A stretch of 64,000 nt of DNA. Origin: Pirellulales bacterium (GTDB lineage Bacteria > Planctomycetota > Planctomycetia > Pirellulales > JADZDJ01). Positions within the stretch are counted from its first letter, which is position 1, and the number at the start of each line of letters is the position of its first letter. The stretch lies in NCBI GenBank assembly GCA_020851115.1, contig JADZDJ010000212.1, forward strand, positions 1 through 64,000, in the 5' to 3' direction. Below the pieces are notes generated by a model. The model was not told the DNA's origin. It did no database searches and saw only the letters and a list, made by a program, of their open reading frames with translations. Shown one piece after another: positions 41,577 to 54,657 of the stretch. The position numbers and the translations under genes were made by a program.

Positions 41577-44500
41577 TCAGCCATCCTCCGCCGCACTTCG
41601 CTGTGTAAATCGCTCTCGCACGGCCGCGAGCCAATCCATCGTCGGCCAGGCATACGGGCGGAATTTTTCCAGTCGGCCTTCTTCCTCGTTATAGAAATAC
41701 GCCACGTGGGGGCCGAGCCGGCTGGCGACCGGCGAGTCGACCAAGTGGCTACTGTCTCCCGCGCTCATTTGGAACAGCACTCGATGGCCAAACTCACGCA
41801 ACAGTTGGCGATCGAACGCGCGATTGACAGAGTTGAGCGAATCGCACCAAACGATGGTGTAGACGCCCACCGCGGGGCCGTCGCGCAGAATCGCGGACAG
41901 CATTTTCGTCGGGCTGGGCGGTTTTTCGTCGCTGCCAAACGAGAATCCCATGTCGCTGTCGTCGCGGCGTAGGTCGCGGAAGCGTCCCAGACCGCAGATG
42001 AACAAGTAAAGTGCCGGATCGGTCTGCTGCTGTTTGGCTTGCCGCTCTTCGACTTGCTGGGCGATTTCCGCCACGATCGCTGGCAAATCGCGGCGGCCGC
42101 CGGCATGAATTTCGTGTGGTAGGATCGTGGAAAATGCCGCAAGGCCGCCGCGGAAATCGGCGATTTGCTCGACTAAGGGTACGTCCGTTGGGCGATCGTG
42201 TTCGAGTACGTAAAATTTCGCAGGACTGCCGGCGCCGAACGTGGACGATTCGACCGCGGTCGACTCGGTAGGACGATGTTGTGCGGCCAAGCCAACCATC
42301 GAGGCGGCGAGTATGCCGAGAACCGCTTCTTCGCGCTGGCCGACGATCAATAGATTGCTGCCGCTTTGGGGACGCAGCACAGCGGCGGTTGGATCTTTGA
42401 TCGCAATGGCATCGCCGAGCCAGGCGTGGATCGGCATCGATTGCACCGGCCAGTCTACGGCCCGCAGCATCTCTGCCAGCGTGCGATTGCGGGTCACATC
42501 AGATGGGACATTGCCTTCGAACACAATCGGTGGCGCTGGCACGTTGATCGTGCCTTCATCGACGGATTTGTCGGCCAATACGCGCAAGTTTTTCAAGTAG
42601 TCTTCGCGCCGTTCATCGGCCAGCCAGACGACTTGGAACGGATGATTGCCCGCCACCAGGCCGTTGGCGTCGTTGTAAATGGCTTCGCCGGGGCGGGAGA
42701 GCAGCCGTGCGGCCGAGTTTTCTTCACTCAGAATCAGATTGGCGTCCGATTCGCTGCACTGCAATGCAATGCGCACGGCCATTTGGCCGATCGTGCTGCG
42801 GGCCAAACTGTACGCCCCGCCCAACGTTTGTGAGCCGAGCAAAACGTGCATGCCGAACGCACGGCCTTGCCGCACCAGGCGATCGAGCAGCAGGGCGGCA
42901 TCTTGCGCGAGCTTGTCGTCGTCGGTAAAAAGCTCCTGGAACTCATCGACCACCAGCAACAGACGCGGCATCGAACGCAGTCCAACGGCAGCGCGGTAGC
43001 CAGATAAATCCTGAACACCGGCATCGCGGAACAGATCGCCGCGACGTTTTAGTTCAAGGTCCAACTTTTCCAACACACTCAGACCGAATTCCCGTTCACT
43101 TTCGATGGCGATCACCCGTGCATGCGGCAACAAATGCGTTGCATAAGTCTTGAATTCAACTCCCTTCTTGAAGTCGATGAGGTACAGTTCCAGTTGATCG
43201 GGACTATAGATGAGCGAAGCATTGGTCACCAGCGCATGCAGCAGCGTCGATTTGCCGGAGCCGGTTTTGCCAGCAATGAGCACGTGCTGCGAAGTCCCCT
43301 GACCCAAGCTCAAATATTGCAGCTTCGTTGCCCCGGCTCGGCCGAGCGGCACGCGAATGCTTTTGCTCGTGTCGCCTGCCCACCATTTGTCGCGCTGCGG
43401 AGCGACATAATCGAATGGCACTTCAACTCGCTTGGCTTCTTTGGCTCCGCGGCCGACAACATGCACCAGTCGCGTGAATTGCTCTTCGGACGGCGGCTTG
43501 TCGAGTTGCAATGGATAATTCTGCAGCCCCGAATCCTGCCACACAAATCGTTGGCCGCTCCAAGCGAGAGTGACCGCGCTTCTTTCTAATTCTCTCAGAT
43601 CAAATCGCGGCGGCAGCGGCTGATTCACATCGTTGACGACCAGCGTGTAGACGCCGCATCGCGCGCCGGTGGTCGCAATGCTGGTCAGTCGCCGGGCAGC
43701 GTTTTCGGTAAAATTCACCGGAAAATTTGCCACCACGAGCACGCGAAACGGCTCGGCGACTTCGCCGGCGAAGGCGTTGTATTCGTCGATCGACTTGAAC
43801 TCGTTGCGCAGGTATTTCTGAATGACGTTTTCCATTTGCTCGGTCAGATCGGCCAATCGCTGCTCGATCTGCTGCGGCTCGGTCCAAATGCGGTTCGTCA
43901 CGAGTTGCTCGTCATAGTCGGCTAAATGCATGAAACCGGCGAAGTTTTCGCCCAGACCGACCGGGTCGATGATTGTGAAACGCACTTTGCTCGGTGGAAT
44001 CGTCGTCAGCATCCTCAGCATCAGTGATTGCACCGCGGCAATCGCATGCCTTCGACCTTCCCCCGCTGCTTTAATCAGCAGCGAGGCGTTTTGCGGAAAT
44101 GGCAACCAAGCGGGCATGACGAACTTGGTCGGTAAAATGCCATTCAGCCGCTGGTCGCCGGAAATACCGGCAGGGATGGCCTCTAAATCGACTTGATACG
44201 CTCCAAACTGCAACGCCGGCGGCGGAACGGTCGGCGGCTGCCACGTGTTCCAACGCGGATTGCTCCATGCCGGAAAATAGCGATCGCTGTCGCGATGATG
44301 CTCTTCGATCACCTGGCGAATCTGTTGCATTGAGTTTTGCCAGGTCGTCGAGAGCGAATTCCAGTCTTCGTCGTGCGTGCGGCGGATCGTCGCAGTCGCT
44401 TCATGGAAGTGATCCTGGGCGGCGCGAAGCGTCGTTTGATAGTGTTCACGAATCGCTTCGAGTTTCGGCGGATAGCTGGAGTGGGCCTCGGCGATTGAGG

Positions 44501-45644
44501 CATCGCGATCGCGAGCCAACTCCGCGATGCGGACGTGATGCTTTTGTCTGGCGGCCAGTATCGCGGCATCGCGCCCGCTGACCGCGGCGGCAGTCGAGGC
44601 TGCCAGCTTGTCTTTGGCCGCTGCCAACTCGCTGTCCCGCCGCTCGACGATCCGTATCGACTCGGCGGCACAGCGATCTTTCGCATGCCGCCGGACGGTC
44701 TGCGCGGATCGATATCCACGGATCAGCGTCGAGTACAGAGCGTCATAGAGCGGTGCGATCGCCGTCGCCGCTTTTCGATGCAAAATAATTCCGGCGGTGG
44801 CCGATGCCACGAGCGTACCGATGCCGCCGACGATTAGCCACGTCCAACTCGTCCAGCCTTGGTTGTCGATGGCCAAGTAGGCAGTTCCACAAAAAATTGC
44901 CGTCAACGCCAAGCAGATGCCCAGCGGGTTTCCACCGGCAAGCATGCGTGCGGCCAGCGGCCTGGCGAGCGCCTGCGCTTGATCGAGCGCTCGCTGTGCG
45001 CTTTCGTGCAATTTGAGCATGGCATTGGTGTCGTTCGCGGTAGGCGCCTCGCTTGGCAAGGCGAAATTTCCCTCGCCGAGCGCGTGGTCTACGCTTGCCG
45101 CTTCAATCTCAGACCCTTCGCCAACGGCTGCTTCTGGGATCGGCCGCTGCATCCCTGCGTGCCGAAAACTTGCCAATTGCCGGTTCGCATGAGCAAGCGT
45201 CTGCTTGAGTGAGGCGATGAGAGCATCGACTTGTTTTTCTTCCTGTTCAAGTTGCAGCTTGGGAGCATTCTGCGTGGCCTCGAACACCGTATTGGCTTCC
45301 CAAACTTCCTCTCCCGCTTTTTTCTTCGCTCGTCGCTCGGTCTTGGCGCAATCGATGCGGGCTTTTTCGATGGTCCAGTGCAATTCGCTTTCGACCGACG
45401 AGTGCAATGTCTCAAACTGCATTTGCGCGCCGGCGATGACGGCATCGTATTCGCGCTGCGTGTTGTCGCGGTCCAACTGAAACCGCATGATCGCCCCTTG
45501 CCGCGCATCGCTCAGCGCTTGCTTGGTTCGATCCGAAGCGGCAGCGAATTCCGATCGCGTCTGTCCTTCGGCCAGTTCTCGCTCAAACGCCAGCGTATGC
45601 AGCCGAGCGAGGAGTTCACGATGAGTTTCGGGGGTAAGGGACAT
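41577..45644 (-). CDS. Membrane FtsK/SpoIIIE (EccC/EssC-like) ATPase of a T7SS-like locus
   Basis: 1355 residues. Residues 1-160 and 310-460 are charged coiled coils. Between them two membrane helices lie near 241-287. Three ATPase-like modules follow. The first (about 480-700) has lost its P-loop (IKAAGEGRRHAIAAVQS). The second is canonical, with Walker A AGKTGSGKST (791-800), FtsK-type ELYLIDFKKGVEF and Walker B LLLVVDEF (about 896-902), then SQTLGGAYSLARSTIGQMAVRIALQ. The third has a degenerate loop (LLIVGQREEAVLG). One active and two degenerate motor domains after paired helices is the plan of EccC/EssC secretion motors. The three helical genes upstream complete a likely operon. Confidence 0.85.
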   Translation of the reverse strand: MSLTPETHRELLARLHTLAFERELAEGQTRSEFAAASDRTKQALSDARQGAIMRFQLDRDNTQREYDAVIAGAQMQFETLHSSVESELHWTIEKARIDCAKTERRAKKKAGEEVWEANTVFEATQNAPKLQLEQEEKQVDALIASLKQTLAHANRQLASFRHAGMQRPIPEAAVGEGSEIEAASVDHALGEGNFALPSEAPTANDTNAMLKLHESAQRALDQAQALARPLAARMLAGGNPLGICLALTAIFCGTAYLAIDNQGWTSWTWLIVGGIGTLVASATAGIILHRKAATAIAPLYDALYSTLIRGYRSAQTVRRHAKDRCAAESIRIVERRDSELAAAKDKLAASTAAAVSGRDAAILAARQKHHVRIAELARDRDASIAEAHSSYPPKLEAIREHYQTTLRAAQDHFHEATATIRRTHDEDWNSLSTTWQNSMQQIRQVIEEHHRDSDRYFPAWSNPRWNTWQPPTVPPPALQFGAYQVDLEAIPAGISGDQRLNGILPTKFVMPAWLPFPQNASLLIKAAGEGRRHAIAAVQSLMLRMLTTIPPSKVRFTIIDPVGLGENFAGFMHLADYDEQLVTNRIWTEPQQIEQRLADLTEQMENVIQKYLRNEFKSIDEYNAFAGEVAEPFRVLVVANFPVNFTENAARRLTSIATTGARCGVYTLVVNDVNQPLPPRFDLRELERSAVTLAWSGQRFVWQDSGLQNYPLQLDKPPSEEQFTRLVHVVGRGAKEAKRVEVPFDYVAPQRDKWWAGDTSKSIRVPLGRAGATKLQYLSLGQGTSQHVLIAGKTGSGKSTLLHALVTNASLIYSPDQLELYLIDFKKGVEFKTYATHLLPHARVIAIESEREFGLSVLEKLDLELKRRGDLFRDAGVQDLSGYRAAVGLRSMPRLLLVVDEFQELFTDDDKLAQDAALLLDRLVRQGRAFGMHVLLGSQTLGGAYSLARSTIGQMAVRIALQCSESDANLILSEENSAARLLSRPGEAIYNDANGLVAGNHPFQVVWLADERREDYLKNLRVLADKSVDEGTINVPAPPIVFEGNVPSDVTRNRTLAEMLRAVDWPVQSMPIHAWLGDAIAIKDPTAAVLRPQSGSNLLIVGQREEAVLGILAASMVGLAAQHRPTESTAVESSTFGAGSPAKFYVLEHDRPTDVPLVEQIADFRGGLAAFSTILPHEIHAGGRRDLPAIVAEIAQQVEERQAKQQQTDPALYLFICGLGRFRDLRRDDSDMGFSFGSDEKPPSPTKMLSAILRDGPAVGVYTIVWCDSLNSVNRAFDRQLLREFGHRVLFQMSAGDSSHLVDSPVASRLGPHVAYFYNEEEGRLEKFRPYAWPTMDWLAAVRERFTQRSAAEDG

Positions 45645-45774
45645 GGACGCGGGCGATCTAGCTGAATGGGCTGGCGACAGGGTTACTCAATCGATGAAGG
45701 AGGAATGATCCACGGATGTGTGTGCGATTCATTCGTCTTTCATTATTTTTCAATTTCAATGGATCACATGAGTT

Positions 45775-45996
45775 TCATTCACAATCTCTTTCCGCCGTGC
45801 CCAGCACCTCCGCTAATCGGCCAACGGCTTCGAGCGCGGCGGCGATCTGAGGCTCGATCGGGTCAATATACGTTTCCTCAAATCGTTGGCGATTGGCATC
45901 GTGCCAGTGTTCCTTCGTGTCTTCCCAGTGGACGCGGAGCGTTTTCCAGGCTGAGGAAATTTTCGCGGCACCAGTGGTTAAATCCGCAATTCTCAT
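45775..45996 (-). CDS. Small WXG100-like helical protein
   Basis: 73 residues (MRIADLTTGAAKISSAWKTL...). It is predicted to be two helices joined by a turn. The middle has VHWEDTKEHWHDANRQRFEETYIDP, in which a Trp is followed by a conserved Phe and Tyr at the spacing seen in WXG100 proteins (W-x-D-x-x-x-x-F). It lies two bases after the 224-aa helical protein and 130 bp before the FtsK-like gene. A secreted substrate or structural partner of the ATPase is the inference. Confidence 0.65.
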   Translation of the reverse strand: MRIADLTTGAAKISSAWKTLRVHWEDTKEHWHDANRQRFEETYIDPIEPQIAAALEAVGRLAEVLGTAERDCE

Positions 45997-45998
45997 GG

Positions 45999-46673
45999 TC
46001 AGACCGTCTCCTCAGCGCTAGACTCGCTGGCGGTTTCGGTTGGATGGGTTTGGGAGTCGGTGTCGGCAGCGGTTGATTCAATGGAACGGATTTGGATGGC
46101 TCCCACTCCCGGACCCTTTGGCTCTTCGCCTTCGGCGGGCCGCACGATCGACTCAGTTCCTACCACAGCTTCCCACGGAATCGCCTTTGGCGCTTGAGCC
46201 GCAGCATAGCGATCGAGTGCTGCCGACATCCGCTGGAGCACCGCCATCGCCCGCGGCACATCGCCATCGAGCATCGCCATTAACTGTTGCAAGGGACCGC
46301 GAAATTCGTCAACCGCCCGTGGCGCGGCAATGCACCACCGTCGCACGGCATCGATCTTTTGGTCGGCATATTCGAGGCGGCGCTTGCATCGATCGACCTG
46401 TTTTTTTTCCTCGGCGCATGCTGGCACGTAGTTGTCAATTTTCTTAAATGTGCGGGCATTCACCAAATCGTCCTTCGCGCGGGCCAGCATGTCGCTGCTG
46501 CGACGGGCCTCGCTGCGCCAATGGGCAGGCCGGTCTTGCGTGATCCATTGCAACGCCCGTTGCGACTCGATTTCCAAATCGATCACCGCCTGTCGAACCA
46601 GGGTGGCAAAATTTGCGAGCGCCGCTCGGAAATCGGCGATGGCTGCAACATCGGTGACGCTGGCTTGCGGCAT
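45999..46673 (-). CDS. Helical protein of the T7SS-like locus
   Basis: 224 residues from the ATG at 46673 (MPQASVTDVAAIADF); an upstream start at 46712 is possible. The first 170 residues are long amphipathic helices (FRAALANFATLVRQAVIDLEIESQRALQWI, then HWRSEARRSSDMLARAKDDLVNARTF and EEKKQVDRCKRRLEYADQKIDAVRRW). The C-terminal 60 residues are acidic and disordered. The shape and the QW/HW positions recall LXG/WXG-type secreted proteins. Not otherwise recognised. Confidence 0.65.
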   Translation of the reverse strand: MPQASVTDVAAIADFRAALANFATLVRQAVIDLEIESQRALQWITQDRPAHWRSEARRSSDMLARAKDDLVNARTFKKIDNYVPACAEEKKQVDRCKRRLEYADQKIDAVRRWCIAAPRAVDEFRGPLQQLMAMLDGDVPRAMAVLQRMSAALDRYAAAQAPKAIPWEAVVGTESIVRPAEGEEPKGPGVGAIQIRSIESTAADTDSQTHPTETASESSAEETV

Positions 46674-46775
46674 AATTGCGAAATTGCTTAACCGCGAATG
46701 ATCGCTAGTCAACGCGAACGAGGATGAATCGAGACTTTCCGCAACTTGCGACCATGAGCGAGAATGAGCGGTTCC

Positions 46776-47048
46776 TTATCGCTGTTGCAAATACTCTTCG
46801 ATTTTTTCTACCTTGCGTAGTAAATACGGAATATATTCATTCGTCGATTCAACGAATCTGGCCATCGTGCGCATTTGCTGTTCAAATTCTTCGACGAACT
46901 TGCGATGCTCTTGGTCGCGCCAAGTGTTGCTCAGGTTATTGAGCTGCCGTTGCACACCCTGCATCTGCGTCAGCATTTCACCGCTGAAGCGCTTCAGGTG
47001 CTGCACAAAATGGCGCAAATCTCCAGGATCGACAATCGCTTGTGACAT
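46776..47048 (-). CDS. WXG100 family-like protein
   Basis: 90 residues from the ATG at 47048 (MSQAIVDPGDLRHF). It has the size and helical-hairpin layout of ESAT-6/WXG100 proteins. Helix 1 is LRHFVQHLKRFSGEMLTQMQGVQRQLNNL, the turn has the conserved Trp (SNTWRD), and helix 2 continues EHRKFVEEFEQQMRTMARFVESTNEYIPYLLRKVEKIEEYL. It is the first gene of the locus; about 100 bp separate it from the next. The open frame upstream of 47048 is not protein-like. Confidence 0.75.
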   Translation of the reverse strand: MSQAIVDPGDLRHFVQHLKRFSGEMLTQMQGVQRQLNNLSNTWRDQEHRKFVEEFEQQMRTMARFVESTNEYIPYLLRKVEKIEEYLQQR

Positions 47049-50547: not shown

Positions 50548-50914
50548 GGGGGCGAACTGGGTTCGACCGGATAGGTTGAAAGGGGAGGTGGCGTGCCGTG
50601 GTTGGTCAGCTGGCCACGTAAAAAGCCGACCAAAATCTCAGTTGCCAACAGCAACTTTGCTCTGGCCGCCTAGAGATAGGCGTCCCTGACTGAGGGCTTT
50701 CGTCGGAGAGGCCCAAAAGTCAGTTGCCAATTCCGAATCGCTGCGGGTCACCGCCTGGTATCCCCGCGGCTAAACCAGTTCCGGGCTAGCCTGCGAAGCA
50801 CCCCGGCGGTTGGGGACCAGCGAGTGAAAAACGTCCGTCAAATCATCCGTCTACGCACGTAGAAGCCACCCACTGAAATATCGCGGGACGCGGGTTCGAT
50901 TCCCGCCGCCTCCA
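50548..50914 (+). ncRNA. ssrA: Transfer-messenger RNA (tmRNA)
   Basis: About 367 nt. The 5' end GGGGGCGAACTGGGTTCGAC is the conserved tmRNA start, and its first seven bases pair with CGCCTCC near the 3' end, leaving A50914 as discriminator; CCA is not encoded. The T arm is GCGGGTTCGATTCCCGC. The tag reading frame is GCC AAC AGC AAC TTT GCT CTG GCC GCC TAG (50644-50673), giving ANSNFALAA, with the usual FALAA-type degradation signal. It rescues stalled ribosomes. An integrative element is inserted at its 3' end; the 3' end is restored by the attachment-site repeat. Confidence 0.93.
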
Positions 50915-52208
50915 TCCCCCCATATTGTAGGGTATCGCAAGAAGTCGCGAAACCTTGCAATTCGGGGGTTTTTTCATGCGCGGCCATTGTCGGTTGCGGC
51001 TCGTTGCGCGTCAAAACGAGCGCGTGCTGCGCCGCTTTTTGCGCCGCTTTTTCGTCGGCCGTTTCACCGCCCATTGTGGCCCGCTCAAAGTCGGCGTCGG
51101 TTACGTCCACGTAGTGTCGCATTGCCACGGCTTGGGTATTGCCCAACCACTTCGCGACAACCGCCAACGGGAATTGTCGGGCCAGGTCTGTTTCACAGCT
51201 TGCCCGCATCGAATGCCACAAGCGGGGCCAAGGTTCAAGACCGGCGCGACGGACAACCTTTTCCAGCGTGGTTCGGAGATTGGCGTTTCCCCATCCGGCC
51301 GGGCCTTGGGCGCGTCGCCGATATTCTTCGGGTGCGACATATTCGGCTCCATCGGGGGCTTTATCCCAGGCAGCTTCCAGGTGCGGTCGAATGGCGGGGA
51401 ATAGTGGAATCACGCGGTAGCTTCGGCCCGCCAAGTGTTGCGTCTTGGGGCTAGGCACGGTCAACCGCCCGCGTTCCCAATCCACATCTTGCCAGCGTAG
51501 GCTAAGGGCTTCACTCGGCACGCGCAAGCCGGCAAATCGGGATAGGGCAATGAGCAGCTTCCAAGTAACGTTAGGTGCGTGGTCAATCACACGTTGCACG
51601 TCGGCCGCAGGGACATAGGCGCGCCGCTCCGATGCGTCACCAGGCCGATGACGGACAAACTCAAACGGGTTTGCATCGACCAAACCTTGTCGCTTGGCGT
51701 GGGCAAAGAACATGCGGGCGTGTTGCAGCCGCTTGTGAATCGTGGTTGCCCGAAGGTTCGCCGCCAACATGGTTTGTCGAAACGCTTCGGCTTTGGCTGG
51801 CGTCACGTCGGCAAGTGGGCAATCGGCCCCCAGGAAACCCGTTAAGGCGTTGATAACCTGTCCCCAGGCAATCAGACTCGCCGGCTTGTAGTCGCCTTTG
51901 CGGGCCGCCAGCCAGGCTTGCAGAAACGGCCCCAGCGTTGCCGTCGCCTTCGTTTCTGGCATCGCAATCAGCCCGACCGCCGCAAGTTTCTTCGCCATGC
52001 GCGGTTCAAGGTCCGTCACCCACTGGGCCAACTCGCCTTCGACGGGGTGCTTGTAGTGGAGCGATTCGAGTAGTTGCTCCACGCGGTACTTGATGCCTTC
52101 GGCCGTGCGCTGGGAAACCTTGCCTAGCCGGATCGTCGGCCTCTTGCCGTCAGGAGCGACGAACAGAATCCGTCGGCTGCCGTTCTTGTCGCGCGCGATG
52201 CTGGCCAT
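50838..52208 (-). CDS. Tyrosine recombinase/integrase with C-terminus running into tmRNA
   Basis: 456 residues in the integrated state. N-terminal SAM-like core-binding domain about 90-185 (LGPFLQAWLAAR...TTIHKRLQHARMFFAHAKRQGLVDANPFEFV). Catalytic residues: Arg229 (AGLRVPSEAL), Lys255, His332 and Arg335 (WHSMRAS), Trp354 (WLGNTQ), Tyr366 (MRHYVDV). Residues from 432 on (MEAAGIEPASRDI...) are encoded by the att core and the tmRNA 3' region read backwards, so they are not native to the element. It starts three bases after the HTH gene stop. See the finding on the alternative C-terminus at the other end of the element. Confidence 0.92.
   Translation of the reverse strand: MASIARDKNGSRRILFVAPDGKRPTIRLGKVSQRTAEGIKYRVEQLLESLHYKHPVEGELAQWVTDLEPRMAKKLAAVGLIAMPETKATATLGPFLQAWLAARKGDYKPASLIAWGQVINALTGFLGADCPLADVTPAKAEAFRQTMLAANLRATTIHKRLQHARMFFAHAKRQGLVDANPFEFVRHRPGDASERRAYVPAADVQRVIDHAPNVTWKLLIALSRFAGLRVPSEALSLRWQDVDWERGRLTVPSPKTQHLAGRSYRVIPLFPAIRPHLEAAWDKAPDGAEYVAPEEYRRRAQGPAGWGNANLRTTLEKVVRRAGLEPWPRLWHSMRASCETDLARQFPLAVVAKWLGNTQAVAMRHYVDVTDADFERATMGGETADEKAAQKAAQHALVLTRNEPQPTMAAHEKTPELQGFATSCDTLQYGGMEAAGIEPASRDISVGGFYVRRRMI
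50894..50914 (+). repeat. Attachment-site core, tmRNA side
   Basis: 21 bases starting GTTCGATTCC and ending GCCGCCTCCA; the 3' half of the tmRNA T loop/T stem and acceptor. Identical to 57110-57130; the flanks differ on both sides. On the minus strand it encodes MEAAGIE of the integrase. Confidence 0.9.
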
Positions 52209-52211
52209 AGC

Positions 52212-52445
52212 TCACTTGCCTTTCGTTTTTTGGTTGCTCTTTTGCTTTGGGCCGACTAATTGCAGACCCAGATATTCGCCGATTTTGTCGCTGGCCTCTT
52301 GTCCCAGGCCACAAATTTTGTTTACGAACCGCGACAACTGCGCTTCGCTAATTCCCAAATCTTTCGAGATGCGATAGCGAGAAACGTCGGCGTTCAGAAT
52401 TGCTTCTCGCAGTTGCTCCGAAAGTAGCTTTGCTTTGTTGGTCAT
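52212..52445 (-). CDS. Small HTH DNA-binding regulator
   Basis: 77 residues. The helix-turn-helix is plain: LREAILNADVSRYRISKDLGISEAQLSRFVNKICGLGQEASDKIGEYLGLQL, an XRE/Cro-like fold. It lies directly upstream of the integrase gene and shares its transcript, so it probably controls integration. A palindrome sits in its own promoter. The basic tail is GPKQKSNQKTKGK. Transcription is predicted to begin at or next to its ATG. Confidence 0.8.
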   Translation of the reverse strand: MTNKAKLLSEQLREAILNADVSRYRISKDLGISEAQLSRFVNKICGLGQEASDKIGEYLGLQLVGPKQKSNQKTKGK

Positions 52446-52451
52446 AATGGC

Positions 52452-52480
52452 ATCCTAGAGAATACTTACGTAAATGTCAA
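52452..52480 (-). promoter_or_regulatory. Promoter of the HTH-integrase operon with palindromic operator
   Basis: On the minus strand: TTGACA (52480-52475), exactly 17 bases, TAGGAT (52457-52452). The spacer contains the perfect palindrome TTACGTAA (52466-52473), a good operator candidate for the HTH protein itself. The ATG of that gene is at 52445, seven bases from the -10 box, so the message may be leaderless. Confidence 0.65.
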
Positions 52481-52587
52481 GTGCATGGGTTTCACTCCGC
52501 TTTGCCAAAATTGGCAGCCACCATTTTGCGCCTATTGCGTCCGGGCGGGTCGGTTCGATGTTTGATACCCCCGAATTTCGCCGTTTT

Positions 52588-52818
52588 TCAATTTGCCGAC
52601 GGCTCGCCGTACCACCGAACGAATTTGATGAACCGGCGGCAACCGGCGCAATCCCGCCGAACGGATTGCCCATCGTGGATTGGCACATTTTGCCAGGTCG
52701 TAGAACCGCAACGACAAACCGGCTTGGCCTTTGGCGGCTTGGGCGGTTCCGTCTTAGCAGGCCGCACCGCAGGAGCGGAGCAAAGCCCTTCCAAAAACTT
52801 TTTGGCGTCGTACTGCAT
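52588..52818 (-). CDS. Small zinc-ribbon protein
   Basis: 76 residues. A proline/lysine linker (PPKPPKAKP) is followed by a four-cysteine ribbon: CRCGSTTWQNVPIHDGQSVRRDCAGCRRFIKF. It has the size and pattern of phage or element-encoded Zn-finger proteins. It lies in the replication part of the element. Function not known. Confidence 0.6.
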   Translation of the reverse strand: MQYDAKKFLEGLCSAPAVRPAKTEPPKPPKAKPVCRCGSTTWQNVPIHDGQSVRRDCAGCRRFIKFVRWYGEPSAN

Positions 52819-52872
52819 GTAAAAGCTCCGGCCTTGTGTTGTGCGAAACCGACCCCCTACCTACCCTAAAGA

Positions 52873-52920
52873 AATGACCCATAACGACCCAAACGACCCA
52901 AACGACCCATAACGACCCAT
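52873..52920 (+). repeat. Iteron-like direct repeats of AACGACCCA
   Basis: Five near-identical 9-10-base units (AATGACCCA, TAACGACCCA, AACGACCCA, AACGACCCA, TAACGACCCA) run head to tail. Two inverted units (TGGGTCATT twice, 52967-52984) lie 47 bp away inside the end of the ATPase gene. Possible replication origin of the element. Confidence 0.6.
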
Positions 52921-52929
52921 ATGGATTAA

Positions 52930-54657
52930 CTAAAACAGCCCATTATCGGCCGCGTTTCGCTCGCCGTGGGTCATTTGGGTCATTTGGGGCGCTTCCTCAA
53001 GCCCCAGGCCCAGGCCGTAGTTGGATTGCACCGATTGAAGGGACGCAAGTGCGTCGGGCAGATAAGCCCGCCGACCGCCGTACTTGTGGCTCGCGATGCC
53101 GTACCGCTTTAGCAGCCGCCCGATGCCATGCGCCGACCAACGGTCAAACATGTTCGGCTCGGCCATTTTCGCTTTTGCCAAAATGTCGCCAGGCGTCGGC
53201 CGCTCGCCGTTCCGTAGGGCGTCGGTCAAAATCCGCAGCAAAGTTTCATCCGTGTCGGGGGTCTGATCGTCGCGGCAAAGGTCTATGGTCGATAGTGCGT
53301 GTGCCTCGACCAGTCCGCGAAGCCCGTGTGCCCCGTGCGATTCAATCCACGCGGCCAGACTCAGCAGAGGTTGCCATAACTCATAGTCCCGCCCGCTCAT
53401 TGAAGGGCATACGTCCGTTCGCTCCGCCAGGTCTAGCCACGTCGCCCCATGCTCTAGAGCCAGTGAGTGAAGGTCATCGCGCAGCCGTTGCCACGCGGCC
53501 GGTTCGCCGTCGATGCGCCGTCGCGGTTTTTCGCTGCCGGGTGGCGCGCGAAACATCGTGACAGGGATGCACCTCGTCGCCAATGCGGTCGGCAGGCCCG
53601 CGATGCAAGCGAGTGCCTTCGGCCCGAAAACGTCGAATTCGATGGTGCGAAACGAATCTCCGACGGCTTCCAGCCTCGTCGCGCGCCCGCCGCGCTTGTA
53701 ACCGGCGAGCAGCATTGATAGCAGATCGGCCGTTGCCGGGTCGCTCCCTTGCCGCAATCGTTCGGCCTCGTCCAGCAGTAGCGTTCCTCCCCTGTCATTC
53801 ATCGTGCGAAACAGTGCCGCGGCCGTCAAATTAGACGATGCCAGTGGGCGAAACGTCAACCGCGACAGCACCTCAAACACTCGCGACTTTCCGCTTCCGG
53901 CAGGACCGCCAACGAACAAATACGGCACGGCGGGCCAGGCGTGATAAACATAGGTAAGCATCGCCCAGAGGGACAACGTTGCCGTAATGCCCGCTGCTTG
54001 CTCCGGCGGTAGGTCAACAAATAGGGCAAATTGCTCGCACAGTTGTGCAAATATCTCCGCCGGATCGGCAACCGGCGAGCCTCGCAGCCACTCCCGCCTT
54101 GCATCGGCCGACCAGCCGCAAACCGCGTTGCCGCTCGGCTGGCTCGGCTGTGGGTGGACGAACAGTCGACCGGCTGCCCCCAGTTCAACACTGCCGGTCA
54201 GCGTGCGGCATTCACGCCGCCCGTCGGCGTGGCGGACGTATATCAGCCACCGCCCGACGATATGACCGTCGATTTCCGAACGTACCGGAACCGATAAGCC
54301 CGATGCCAGCGGCGCGATGAACCGCTCCGGTCGCACGATTCGCGACGGGTCAACTTCGGGGTAGGTTGCAATTGTTGGCGGTGCGGTTTGCGATTGCGCG
54401 GCCTCGTTGGCCAGAGCCAATTCCAATGCCGCGTCGGCCGCGTCGGCCACCGCGATAATCTGCCCATCGACCGCGCCTAGCTCGGCAGGATCGACCGCCA
54501 ACTTATTCGCCAGCGCCGCGATGAAGCGCCGACGGCTCGCTGCGCTGTTCGGGTCGAACGAATCGCGGTAGACCACTTCGCCGGCCCGCGATTCAACAAT
54601 CCGCTGTGGCTTGCCGTTCGATGGGGCGACCGACAACATGATAGCAGGAATGCTCAT
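52930..54657 (-). CDS. P-loop ATPase, primase/helicase-like (DUF3631-type C-terminus)
   Basis: 575 residues. Walker A is FVGGPAGSGKSRVFEVLSRL, Walker B GGTLLLDEAERLRQ, and a sensor-like segment GGRATRLEAVGDSFRTIEFDVFGPKALACIAGLPTALATRCIPVTMFR follows. The section after it (PAAWQRLRDDLHSLALEHG...CPSMSGRDYELWQPLLSLAAWIE) follows the DUF3631 pattern found at the C-terminus of virus and plasmid primase-helicases. The first 200 residues are not recognised. It should be the replication initiator or helicase of the element. The ATGA overlap couples it to the DnaB-N gene. Confidence 0.75.
   Translation of the reverse strand: MSIPAIMLSVAPSNGKPQRIVESRAGEVVYRDSFDPNSAASRRRFIAALANKLAVDPAELGAVDGQIIAVADAADAALELALANEAAQSQTAPPTIATYPEVDPSRIVRPERFIAPLASGLSVPVRSEIDGHIVGRWLIYVRHADGRRECRTLTGSVELGAAGRLFVHPQPSQPSGNAVCGWSADARREWLRGSPVADPAEIFAQLCEQFALFVDLPPEQAAGITATLSLWAMLTYVYHAWPAVPYLFVGGPAGSGKSRVFEVLSRLTFRPLASSNLTAAALFRTMNDRGGTLLLDEAERLRQGSDPATADLLSMLLAGYKRGGRATRLEAVGDSFRTIEFDVFGPKALACIAGLPTALATRCIPVTMFRAPPGSEKPRRRIDGEPAAWQRLRDDLHSLALEHGATWLDLAERTDVCPSMSGRDYELWQPLLSLAAWIESHGAHGLRGLVEAHALSTIDLCRDDQTPDTDETLLRILTDALRNGERPTPGDILAKAKMAEPNMFDRWSAHGIGRLLKRYGIASHKYGGRRAYLPDALASLQSVQSNYGLGLGLEEAPQMTQMTHGERNAADNGLF

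What the first reader, a model, noticed from the sequence alone, without database searches (positions are those of the whole stretch)
41577..47048. A type VII-like secretion locus with a three-module FtsK motor
The 1355-aa ATPase has coiled coils, two membrane helices and three motor modules, of which only the middle one keeps Walker A and B. In EccC of actinobacteria and EssC of Firmicutes the plan is similar, but the first module is the active one and EssC has FHA domains. Three small helical genes upstream (90, 224 and 73 aa) include two WXG100-like proteins. EccB, EccD, EccE or EsaA-like genes are not seen. It may be a minimal or different T7SS of planctomycetes.
Basis: partly seen in the sequence, partly recalled or inferred. 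Interest (0 to 1): 0.72.

Follow-up and report, generated by a model that had tools for sequence, protein, structure and literature searches.

The report
Membrane-anchored planctomycete WXG100–FtsK secretion-like operon
Four neighbouring genes in this planctomycete encode a cut-down relative of the type VII protein-export machine (a membrane motor plus three small helical partners); the same four genes are kept together, or separately but always all of them, across the phylum, and plasmid relatives carry enzyme toxins in the slot of one partner.

Summary
[quoted passage not shown] The set is not chance. In 246 planctomycete genomes the ATPase occurs in 31, and the three partners in 30, 29 and 30, all within those 31. 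In Planctomycetales the four genes are scattered over up to four chromosomal sites yet all are kept. ATPase sequence and structure are nearest to EccC/EssC, but the protein fails their family cut-offs, has no fourth module, and YukD and YukC (EsaB, EssB) are absent. The wider class was noted in one 2012 footnote (planctomycetes included) and described beside CoCoNuT loci in 2024. New here are the conserved membrane-anchored four-gene unit, the second W-x-D protein, and evidence that the middle gene is a cargo slot: plasmid relatives carry nuclease domains there (one with an immunity gene), four Phycisphaerae an Imm33-like domain. Most likely it is a minimal T7SS-like exporter; export itself is inferred, not shown.

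The parts
46776..47048 (-). WXG100-family protein (90 aa), W-x-D in the turn, invariant Y86 near a conserved C-terminal end YL(Q/E/D)QR
   Evidence: Pfam WXG100 35.2 bits over cut-off; 45/45 relatives hit; best PDB profile match H. pylori HP0062, E 6e-13
45999..46673 (-). mid protein (224 aa): long antiparallel helical hairpin (helices 9-80 and 87-160) with a disordered acidic tail; proposed carrier/cargo protein
   Evidence: AlphaFold2 model with helices at pLDDT 87-99; conserved gene position; plasmid relatives with C-terminal nuclease domains
45775..45996 (-). short WXG100-like protein (73 aa), W-x-D and a conserved near-C-terminal Cys
   Evidence: profile-profile match to the WXG100 family; EsxA best PDB match; 78/79 relatives keep W-x-D
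41577..45644 (-). 1355-aa FtsK/EccC-like ATPase: coiled coil, two membrane helices, coiled coil, three RecA-like modules, middle one catalytic
   Evidence: FtsK_SpoIIIE 122 bits, EccCa 124 bits below its cut-off; Foldseek best 4nh0 EccC E 2e-33; hydropathy; Walker invariance

Best explanation
The locus encodes a membrane-anchored, minimal type-VII-like export unit. The ATPase probably forms a ring at the inner membrane through its TM hairpin; ATP hydrolysis in the middle module drives it. The WXG100 protein and the short W-x-D protein are the hairpin partners that dock substrate on the motor. The mid protein, a 70-residue-helix hairpin, is the carrier/substrate whose C-terminal end is the exchangeable cargo slot (disordered tail in most planctomycetes, Imm33-like domain in some Phycisphaerae, nuclease in plasmid relatives). 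Shown by computation: the gene set, the folds, co-occurrence, kinship to EccC/EssC and to plasmid cassettes with toxins. Inferred: ring formation, docking, the export direction and the cargo role.
For: Four-way co-occurrence 31/30/29/30 of 246 genomes, all nested. Genes scattered but all kept in Planctomycetales, e.g. G105 ATPase 234 kb, WXG 711 kb, short WXG 1936 kb, mid 2664 kb. Upstream order WXG-mid-short-ATPase in 65 of 80 loci with enough sequence. EccC best by profile and by structure. WXG100 membership. Plasmid relatives with WXG + mid-slot nuclease + small protein + ATPase: Helicobacter WHH nuclease followed by SUKH immunity, both over Pfam cut-offs; the Caballeronia mid-slot protein is 436 aa, in a layout the CoCoNuT paper describes with a coiled-coil/D-ExK nuclease fusion. 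The mid profile scores 14-19 bits on three plasmid proteins against at most 9.8 in 176 coiled-coil controls. Gut element MT836827: W-N-D small domain (17.6 bits vs 11.6 highest control) fused to a HELGH-motif protein.
Against: No secretion data. No outer-membrane or channel component found near the genes. Plasmid relatives of the ATPase lack TM helices and sit in conflict/defence loci (PMC11090510), so the cassette may have a non-export ancestral role. The Helicobacter mid-slot protein does not match the mid profile (-4.8 bits), so there the slot argument is positional. No toxin domain was recognised in the window's mid protein.
Confidence: 0.6

Rival explanations
1. An intracellular conflict or stress module rather than an exporter: the ATPase-WXG unit works inside the cell like the cassette attached to TerY-P and CoCoNuT loci, moving or unfolding nucleoprotein or effector complexes.
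For: Closest relatives outside the phylum sit beside VWA, PP2C and kinase genes (Caballeronia), TerD genes (Rhodococcus) or Hsp70/GrpE (R. pseudokoreensis); they have no TM helices; the literature links them to restriction and stress systems. One planctomycete ATPase is fused to a Ser/Thr kinase (L128).
Against: Planctomycete ATPases have a membrane hairpin and no conserved neighbour other than the three partners.
Confidence: 0.25
2. A DNA translocase or conjugation-type motor: the middle module pumps DNA and the WXG100-like proteins are accessory.
For: VIA-align gives single-module Z 30 to FtsK motor domains; in the small tree the FtsK sequences branch next to this clade.
Against: NCBIfam EccCa 124 bits against FtsK 26 bits; Foldseek E 2e-33 to EccC against 3e-17 to FtsK; strict WXG100 partnership; the genome has a separate FtsK with a 217-bit domain; no recurrent relaxase or mating genes in the neighbourhood.
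Confidence: 0.08
3. A housekeeping envelope-assembly device: the three small proteins are themselves the exported structural product and no toxin or cargo is involved. (This overlaps with the best explanation on export and differs on cargo.)
For: Most planctomycete mid proteins carry only disordered tails; no immunity gene in the operon; one copy per genome, retained even when scattered.
Against: Patchy distribution, 31 of 246 genomes; plasmid relatives with nuclease cargo.
Confidence: 0.3

Closest known systems
WXG100 plus three-domain FtsK/HerA 'mobile T7SS' (Zhang et al. 2012, PMC3482391 footnote 6; CoCoNuT-linked EssC-like ATPases, PMC11090510)
   Same: Three FtsK/HerA modules with only the middle one active, N-terminal coiled coil, WXG100 partner(s), no Ecc/Ess accessory genes seen; planctomycetes named in the 2012 footnote
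   Different: Planctomycete ATPases have a membrane hairpin; the four genes form a stable single-copy set with no TerY-P, VWA or nuclease neighbours; the mid protein usually has no toxin domain
Helicobacter HP0062/HP0066-type WXG100-FtsK pair and plasmid pNHP190012_1
   Same: HP0062 is the best solved-structure match of the WXG100 and also has W-R-D; the plasmid locus has WXG, mid-slot protein, small protein, ATPase in the same order
   Different: The plasmid mid-slot protein is a WHH nuclease followed by SUKH immunity; its ATPase is 823 aa without TM helices
T7SSa (ESX) and T7SSb-T7SSj (Ess and variants, PMC11217815)
   Same: Membrane FtsK-type ATPase and WXG100 protein; EccC is the nearest profile and fold
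   Different: Three instead of four C-terminal NTPase modules, EccCa/EssC cut-offs not reached, YukD and YukC absent, W-x-D instead of W-x-G, extended N-terminal coiled coils
LXG effectors with Lap partner proteins of T7SSb (from general knowledge)
   Same: A long helical carrier, small WXG-like partners and an exchangeable C-terminal domain would be the same logic
   Different: No significant fold match to LXG complexes (8gmh_C only at E 0.34); homology not claimed

Membership tests
Type VII secretion system (ESX/Ess) | FtsK/SpoIIIE ATPase of EccC/EssC type | tested here: met
   EccCa best NCBIfam hit 124 bits; EccC 4nh0 best in PDB by sequence and by Foldseek
Type VII secretion system (ESX/Ess) | EccC/EssC equivalog score reached | tested here: not met
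   124 of 509 (EccCa), 96 of 778 (EssC), 83 of 347 (EccCb) bits
Type VII secretion system (ESX/Ess) | four C-terminal NTPase modules in the ATPase | tested here: not met
   three modules in the model of 455-1340; four are stated for T7SSc-j
Type VII secretion system (ESX/Ess) | WXG100 protein encoded with the ATPase | tested here: met
Type VII secretion system (ESX/Ess) | W-x-G motif in the turn of the WXG100 protein | tested here: not met
   W-x-D in 58 of 58
Type VII secretion system (ESX/Ess) | T7SSb core partners YukD/EsaB and YukC/EssB | tested here: not met
   no hit in the whole genome while the B. subtilis control rings
Type VII secretion system (ESX/Ess) | T7SSa partner EccB | tested here: inconclusive
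   no hit, but no control genome rang either
Type VII secretion system (ESX/Ess) | T7SSa partners EccD and EccE, T7SSb partners EsaA and EssA | not tested
Type VII secretion system (ESX/Ess) | YxxxD/E export signal on the hairpin pair | tested here: inconclusive
   WXG100 ends in YLQQR-type sequences; the residue 4 after the invariant Y156 of the mid protein is rarely D/E; the signal might be of another kind
Type VII secretion system (ESX/Ess) | ATPase-dependent secretion of the WXG100 protein | not testable with these tools
   needs a secretion assay
WXG100 + three-module FtsK cassette (Zhang 2012 / CoCoNuT-linked) | three FtsK/HerA modules, only the middle one with Walker motifs | tested here: met
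WXG100 + three-module FtsK cassette (Zhang 2012 / CoCoNuT-linked) | common ancestry of the ATPase with plasmid/CoCoNuT-type members | tested here: met
   catalytic-module tree groups planctomycete and plasmid ATPases outside EccC and FtsK, support 0.78; modest support, few outgroups
WXG100 + three-module FtsK cassette (Zhang 2012 / CoCoNuT-linked) | no transmembrane helices in the ATPase (stated for CoCoNuT-type) | tested here: not met
   two hydrophobic helices here and in 73 of 100 relatives, one in 20; none reach 2.0 in plasmid relatives
DNA translocase FtsK/SpoIIIE | closest profile is FtsK | tested here: not met
   FtsK equivalog 26 bits vs EccCa 124; separate FtsK in the genome

The most novel reading that the evidence does not exclude
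Planctomycetes, which are diderm, have a stably kept, membrane-anchored exporter made of only four proteins: an exchangeable hairpin carrier, two W-x-D adaptors and one motor. It descends from a mobile toxin-delivery cassette, would be the smallest protein-export machine of the type VII kind, and would be the first shown in a diderm outside the mycobacteria.
Probability: 0.35. Interest if true: 0.8.

Novelty: new variant of a known kind. Interest (0 to 1): 0.55.

Why it matters
Type VII secretion is treated as a Gram-positive/actinobacterial machine that needs several membrane partners (PMC11217815 surveys only Bacillota and Actinomycetota). A conserved four-gene unit in a diderm phylum gives a natural minimal version, so one can test directly which parts are enough for WXG100-dependent transport. 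The tie between planctomycete carrier proteins and plasmid toxin/immunity loci also suggests how a mobile weapon may have been turned into a resident machine.

Tried and rejected
PADLOC hits to SspH/mad8 reflect the shared FtsK module only. Conserved neighbours beyond the four genes: none recurrent apart from lineage synteny. WXG near the ATPase in Planctomycetales: absent locally, then found elsewhere by whole-genome search. Iterated HMMs of the WXG and short families merge and the mid HMM drifted into WXG, so later tests used curated alignments; mid-vs-WXG homology is weak (27%) and not claimed. Fold search of the mid model: only generic coiled-coil matches, none at E<=0.001. Module register against EccC: sequence and structure disagree, left open. 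Viral contigs: no relative of A1 or of the Caballeronia ATPase. The own-genome FtsK could not be extracted for the tree.

Full report
What is there. On the minus strand of the window four genes follow one another: WXG100 (46776-47048), mid (45999-46673), short WXG (45775-45996) and ATPase (41577-45644). The mid stop and the short-WXG start almost touch; the other gaps are about 100-130 bp. Downstream lies a convergent gene.

The WXG100 protein passes Pfam's cut-off (35.2 vs 27.3 bits) and all 45 relatives tested hit the same family. Its profile's best solved structure is H. pylori HP0062 (E 6e-13), ahead of B. anthracis EsxB and S. aureus EsxA. HP0062 also has W-R-D in place of W-x-G. W-x-D is fixed in the planctomycete family (58 of 58), and position Y86, near the YL(Q/E/D)QR end, is invariant. 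The 73-aa protein has no Pfam hit of its own, but its family profile matches the WXG100 family (hhalign 87%) and EsxA (E 1e-4); W31 and D33 are invariant and a Cys near the C-terminus is nearly so. The 224-aa mid protein is predicted as two antiparallel helices of about 72 residues (pLDDT mostly above 96) and a disordered tail; fold search finds only generic coiled coils.

The ATPase. Residues 1-235 and 300-460 look coiled-coil, with hydrophobic helices at 241-259 and 270-288. Residues 455-1340 were modelled (pLDDT 84.8, pTM 0.79) and show three modules. Only the middle module has Walker A 792-799 and Walker B D900/E901, invariant in 23 relatives. The nearest NCBIfam model is EccCa (124 bits, cut-off 509), then EssC (96); FtsK scores 26. 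Foldseek: EccC 4nh0 E 2e-33, EssC 4lya E 3e-23, FtsK E 3e-17. VIA-align: two-module overlays of EssC/EccC cover 484-499 residues at Z 28, rmsd 6.6-7.5. Which EccC modules correspond to which modules here is unresolved: profile comparison prefers NBD1-NBD2 for modules 2-3, the overlays use ATPases 2-3.

Is it more than chance? Searching 246 planctomycete genomes gave the ATPase in 31, WXG100 in 30, mid in 29 and short WXG in 30; every genome with a partner is one of the 31. The exceptions are G219 (80% complete, 880 contigs; ATPase and short WXG only) and G107 (ATPase and WXG only; its ATPase is short, without a TM hairpin, and branches basally). A named-genome scan found 391 relatives; the best 80 are nearly all planctomycete contigs from Pirellulales, Isosphaeraceae, Gemmatales, Phycisphaerales and others. 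In 65 of 80 loci with enough upstream sequence the three partners precede the ATPase on the same strand (the WXG and short HMMs cross-detect, so this count rests also on the listed coordinates). Twelve loci lacked them. In the seven Planctomycetales genomes searched whole, the partners turned up elsewhere, one copy each: G105 has the four genes at 234, 711, 1936 and 2664 kb of one chromosome, and G024 has WXG alone, mid and short side by side, ATPase elsewhere. Retention of a scattered set is evidence of a functional unit that synteny alone cannot give.

Relatives outside the phylum. Plasmids of Rhodococcus, Deinococcus, Caballeronia and Helicobacter carry ATPases matching over modules 1-2 or 1-3 and, beside them, WXG100 proteins (40, 35, 86 and 58 bits to the planctomycete profile). 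In Caballeronia the order is WXG, 436-aa protein, 113 aa, 76 aa, ATPase, flanked by VWA, PP2C and kinase genes; this is the CoCoNuT/TerY-P arrangement described in PMC11090510, which reports a coiled-coil/D-ExK nuclease fusion there. In Helicobacter it is WXG, 340-aa WHH nuclease, SUKH immunity protein, 77 aa, ATPase. The curated mid profile scores 16.4, 19.0 and 13.7 bits on the Rhodococcus, Deinococcus and Caballeronia proteins, above all 176 coiled-coil controls (highest 9.8) and all reversed copies, but not on the Helicobacter one. Four Phycisphaerae mid proteins end in an Imm33-like domain, three of them over the Pfam cut-off. A human-gut mobile element has an ATPase of the same kind next to a protein with a W-N-D small domain and a HELGH motif. 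The plasmid ATPases lack TM helices. In a small tree of catalytic modules planctomycete ATPases are one clade (0.99) and join the plasmid ones (0.78), apart from EccC and FtsK.

How it most likely works. Shown by computation: the gene set, folds, kinship and co-occurrence. Inferred: the ATPase sits in the inner membrane as a ring; WXG100 and the short W-x-D protein, with the mid hairpin, form the loaded complex; the mid C-terminus is the cargo end; hydrolysis in the middle module moves the complex. Why most planctomycetes keep a carrier without a recognisable cargo is open; a structural or domesticated role is a serious rival.

What is known. Zhang et al. [quoted passage not shown] A 2016 paper calls HP0062/HP0066 a minimal T7SS set. 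The 2024 survey of T7SS variants covers only Bacillota and Actinomycetota and states four NTPase modules. In the open-access library searched I found no paper that describes the planctomycete operon itself; subscription papers such as Sutcliffe 2011 and Anantharaman 2012 could not be read. Hence: new variant of a known kind.

Noticed in passing
L128:6325-11610: In one planctomycete the ATPase gene is fused in frame behind a Ser/Thr protein kinase domain (Pkinase E 9e-45), a link to the kinases found in T7SSc/T7SSd loci.
   Followed up: partly
L065:7554-8615, L101:4890-5960, L136:1581-2600, L137:7665-8645: Phycisphaerae mid proteins carry a C-terminal Imm33-like domain (PF24719), an immunity-type fold fused to the hairpin.
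   Followed up: partly
L193:584-7647 (MT836827.1, human faecal scaffold): Mobile element with ThiF/E1-like gene, three-module-type ATPase (1423 aa), a protein with a W-N-D WXG-like N-terminus and a HELGH metallopeptidase motif, and recombinases.
   Followed up: partly
L037, L039, L042, L053, L054, L070, L090, L093 (ATPase C-termini): ATPases whose partner genes lie elsewhere in the genome end in a conserved acidic tail D-L-x-x-[FW]-[STR]-[IV]-x; it may be a tether or docking peptide that replaces gene proximity.
   Followed up: no
window 50838-54657: Phage-type integrase gene (Pfam Phage_integrase) with a small gene and a 575-aa unannotated gene: probably a small integrated element about 3.8 kb from the WXG100 gene.
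   Followed up: no
L182:9450-10394 (Rhodococcus plasmid): The mid-slot protein has a C-terminal part without Pfam hit (RIANGFHRVWVARRLGLD) that resembles ParB-like toxin domains by eye; TerD-family genes lie next to the cluster.
   Followed up: no
L058 (genome G107): Outlier with a TM-less 1006-aa ATPase and WXG100 but no mid or short gene found; it branches at the base of the planctomycete clade, possibly a transitional form.
   Followed up: no
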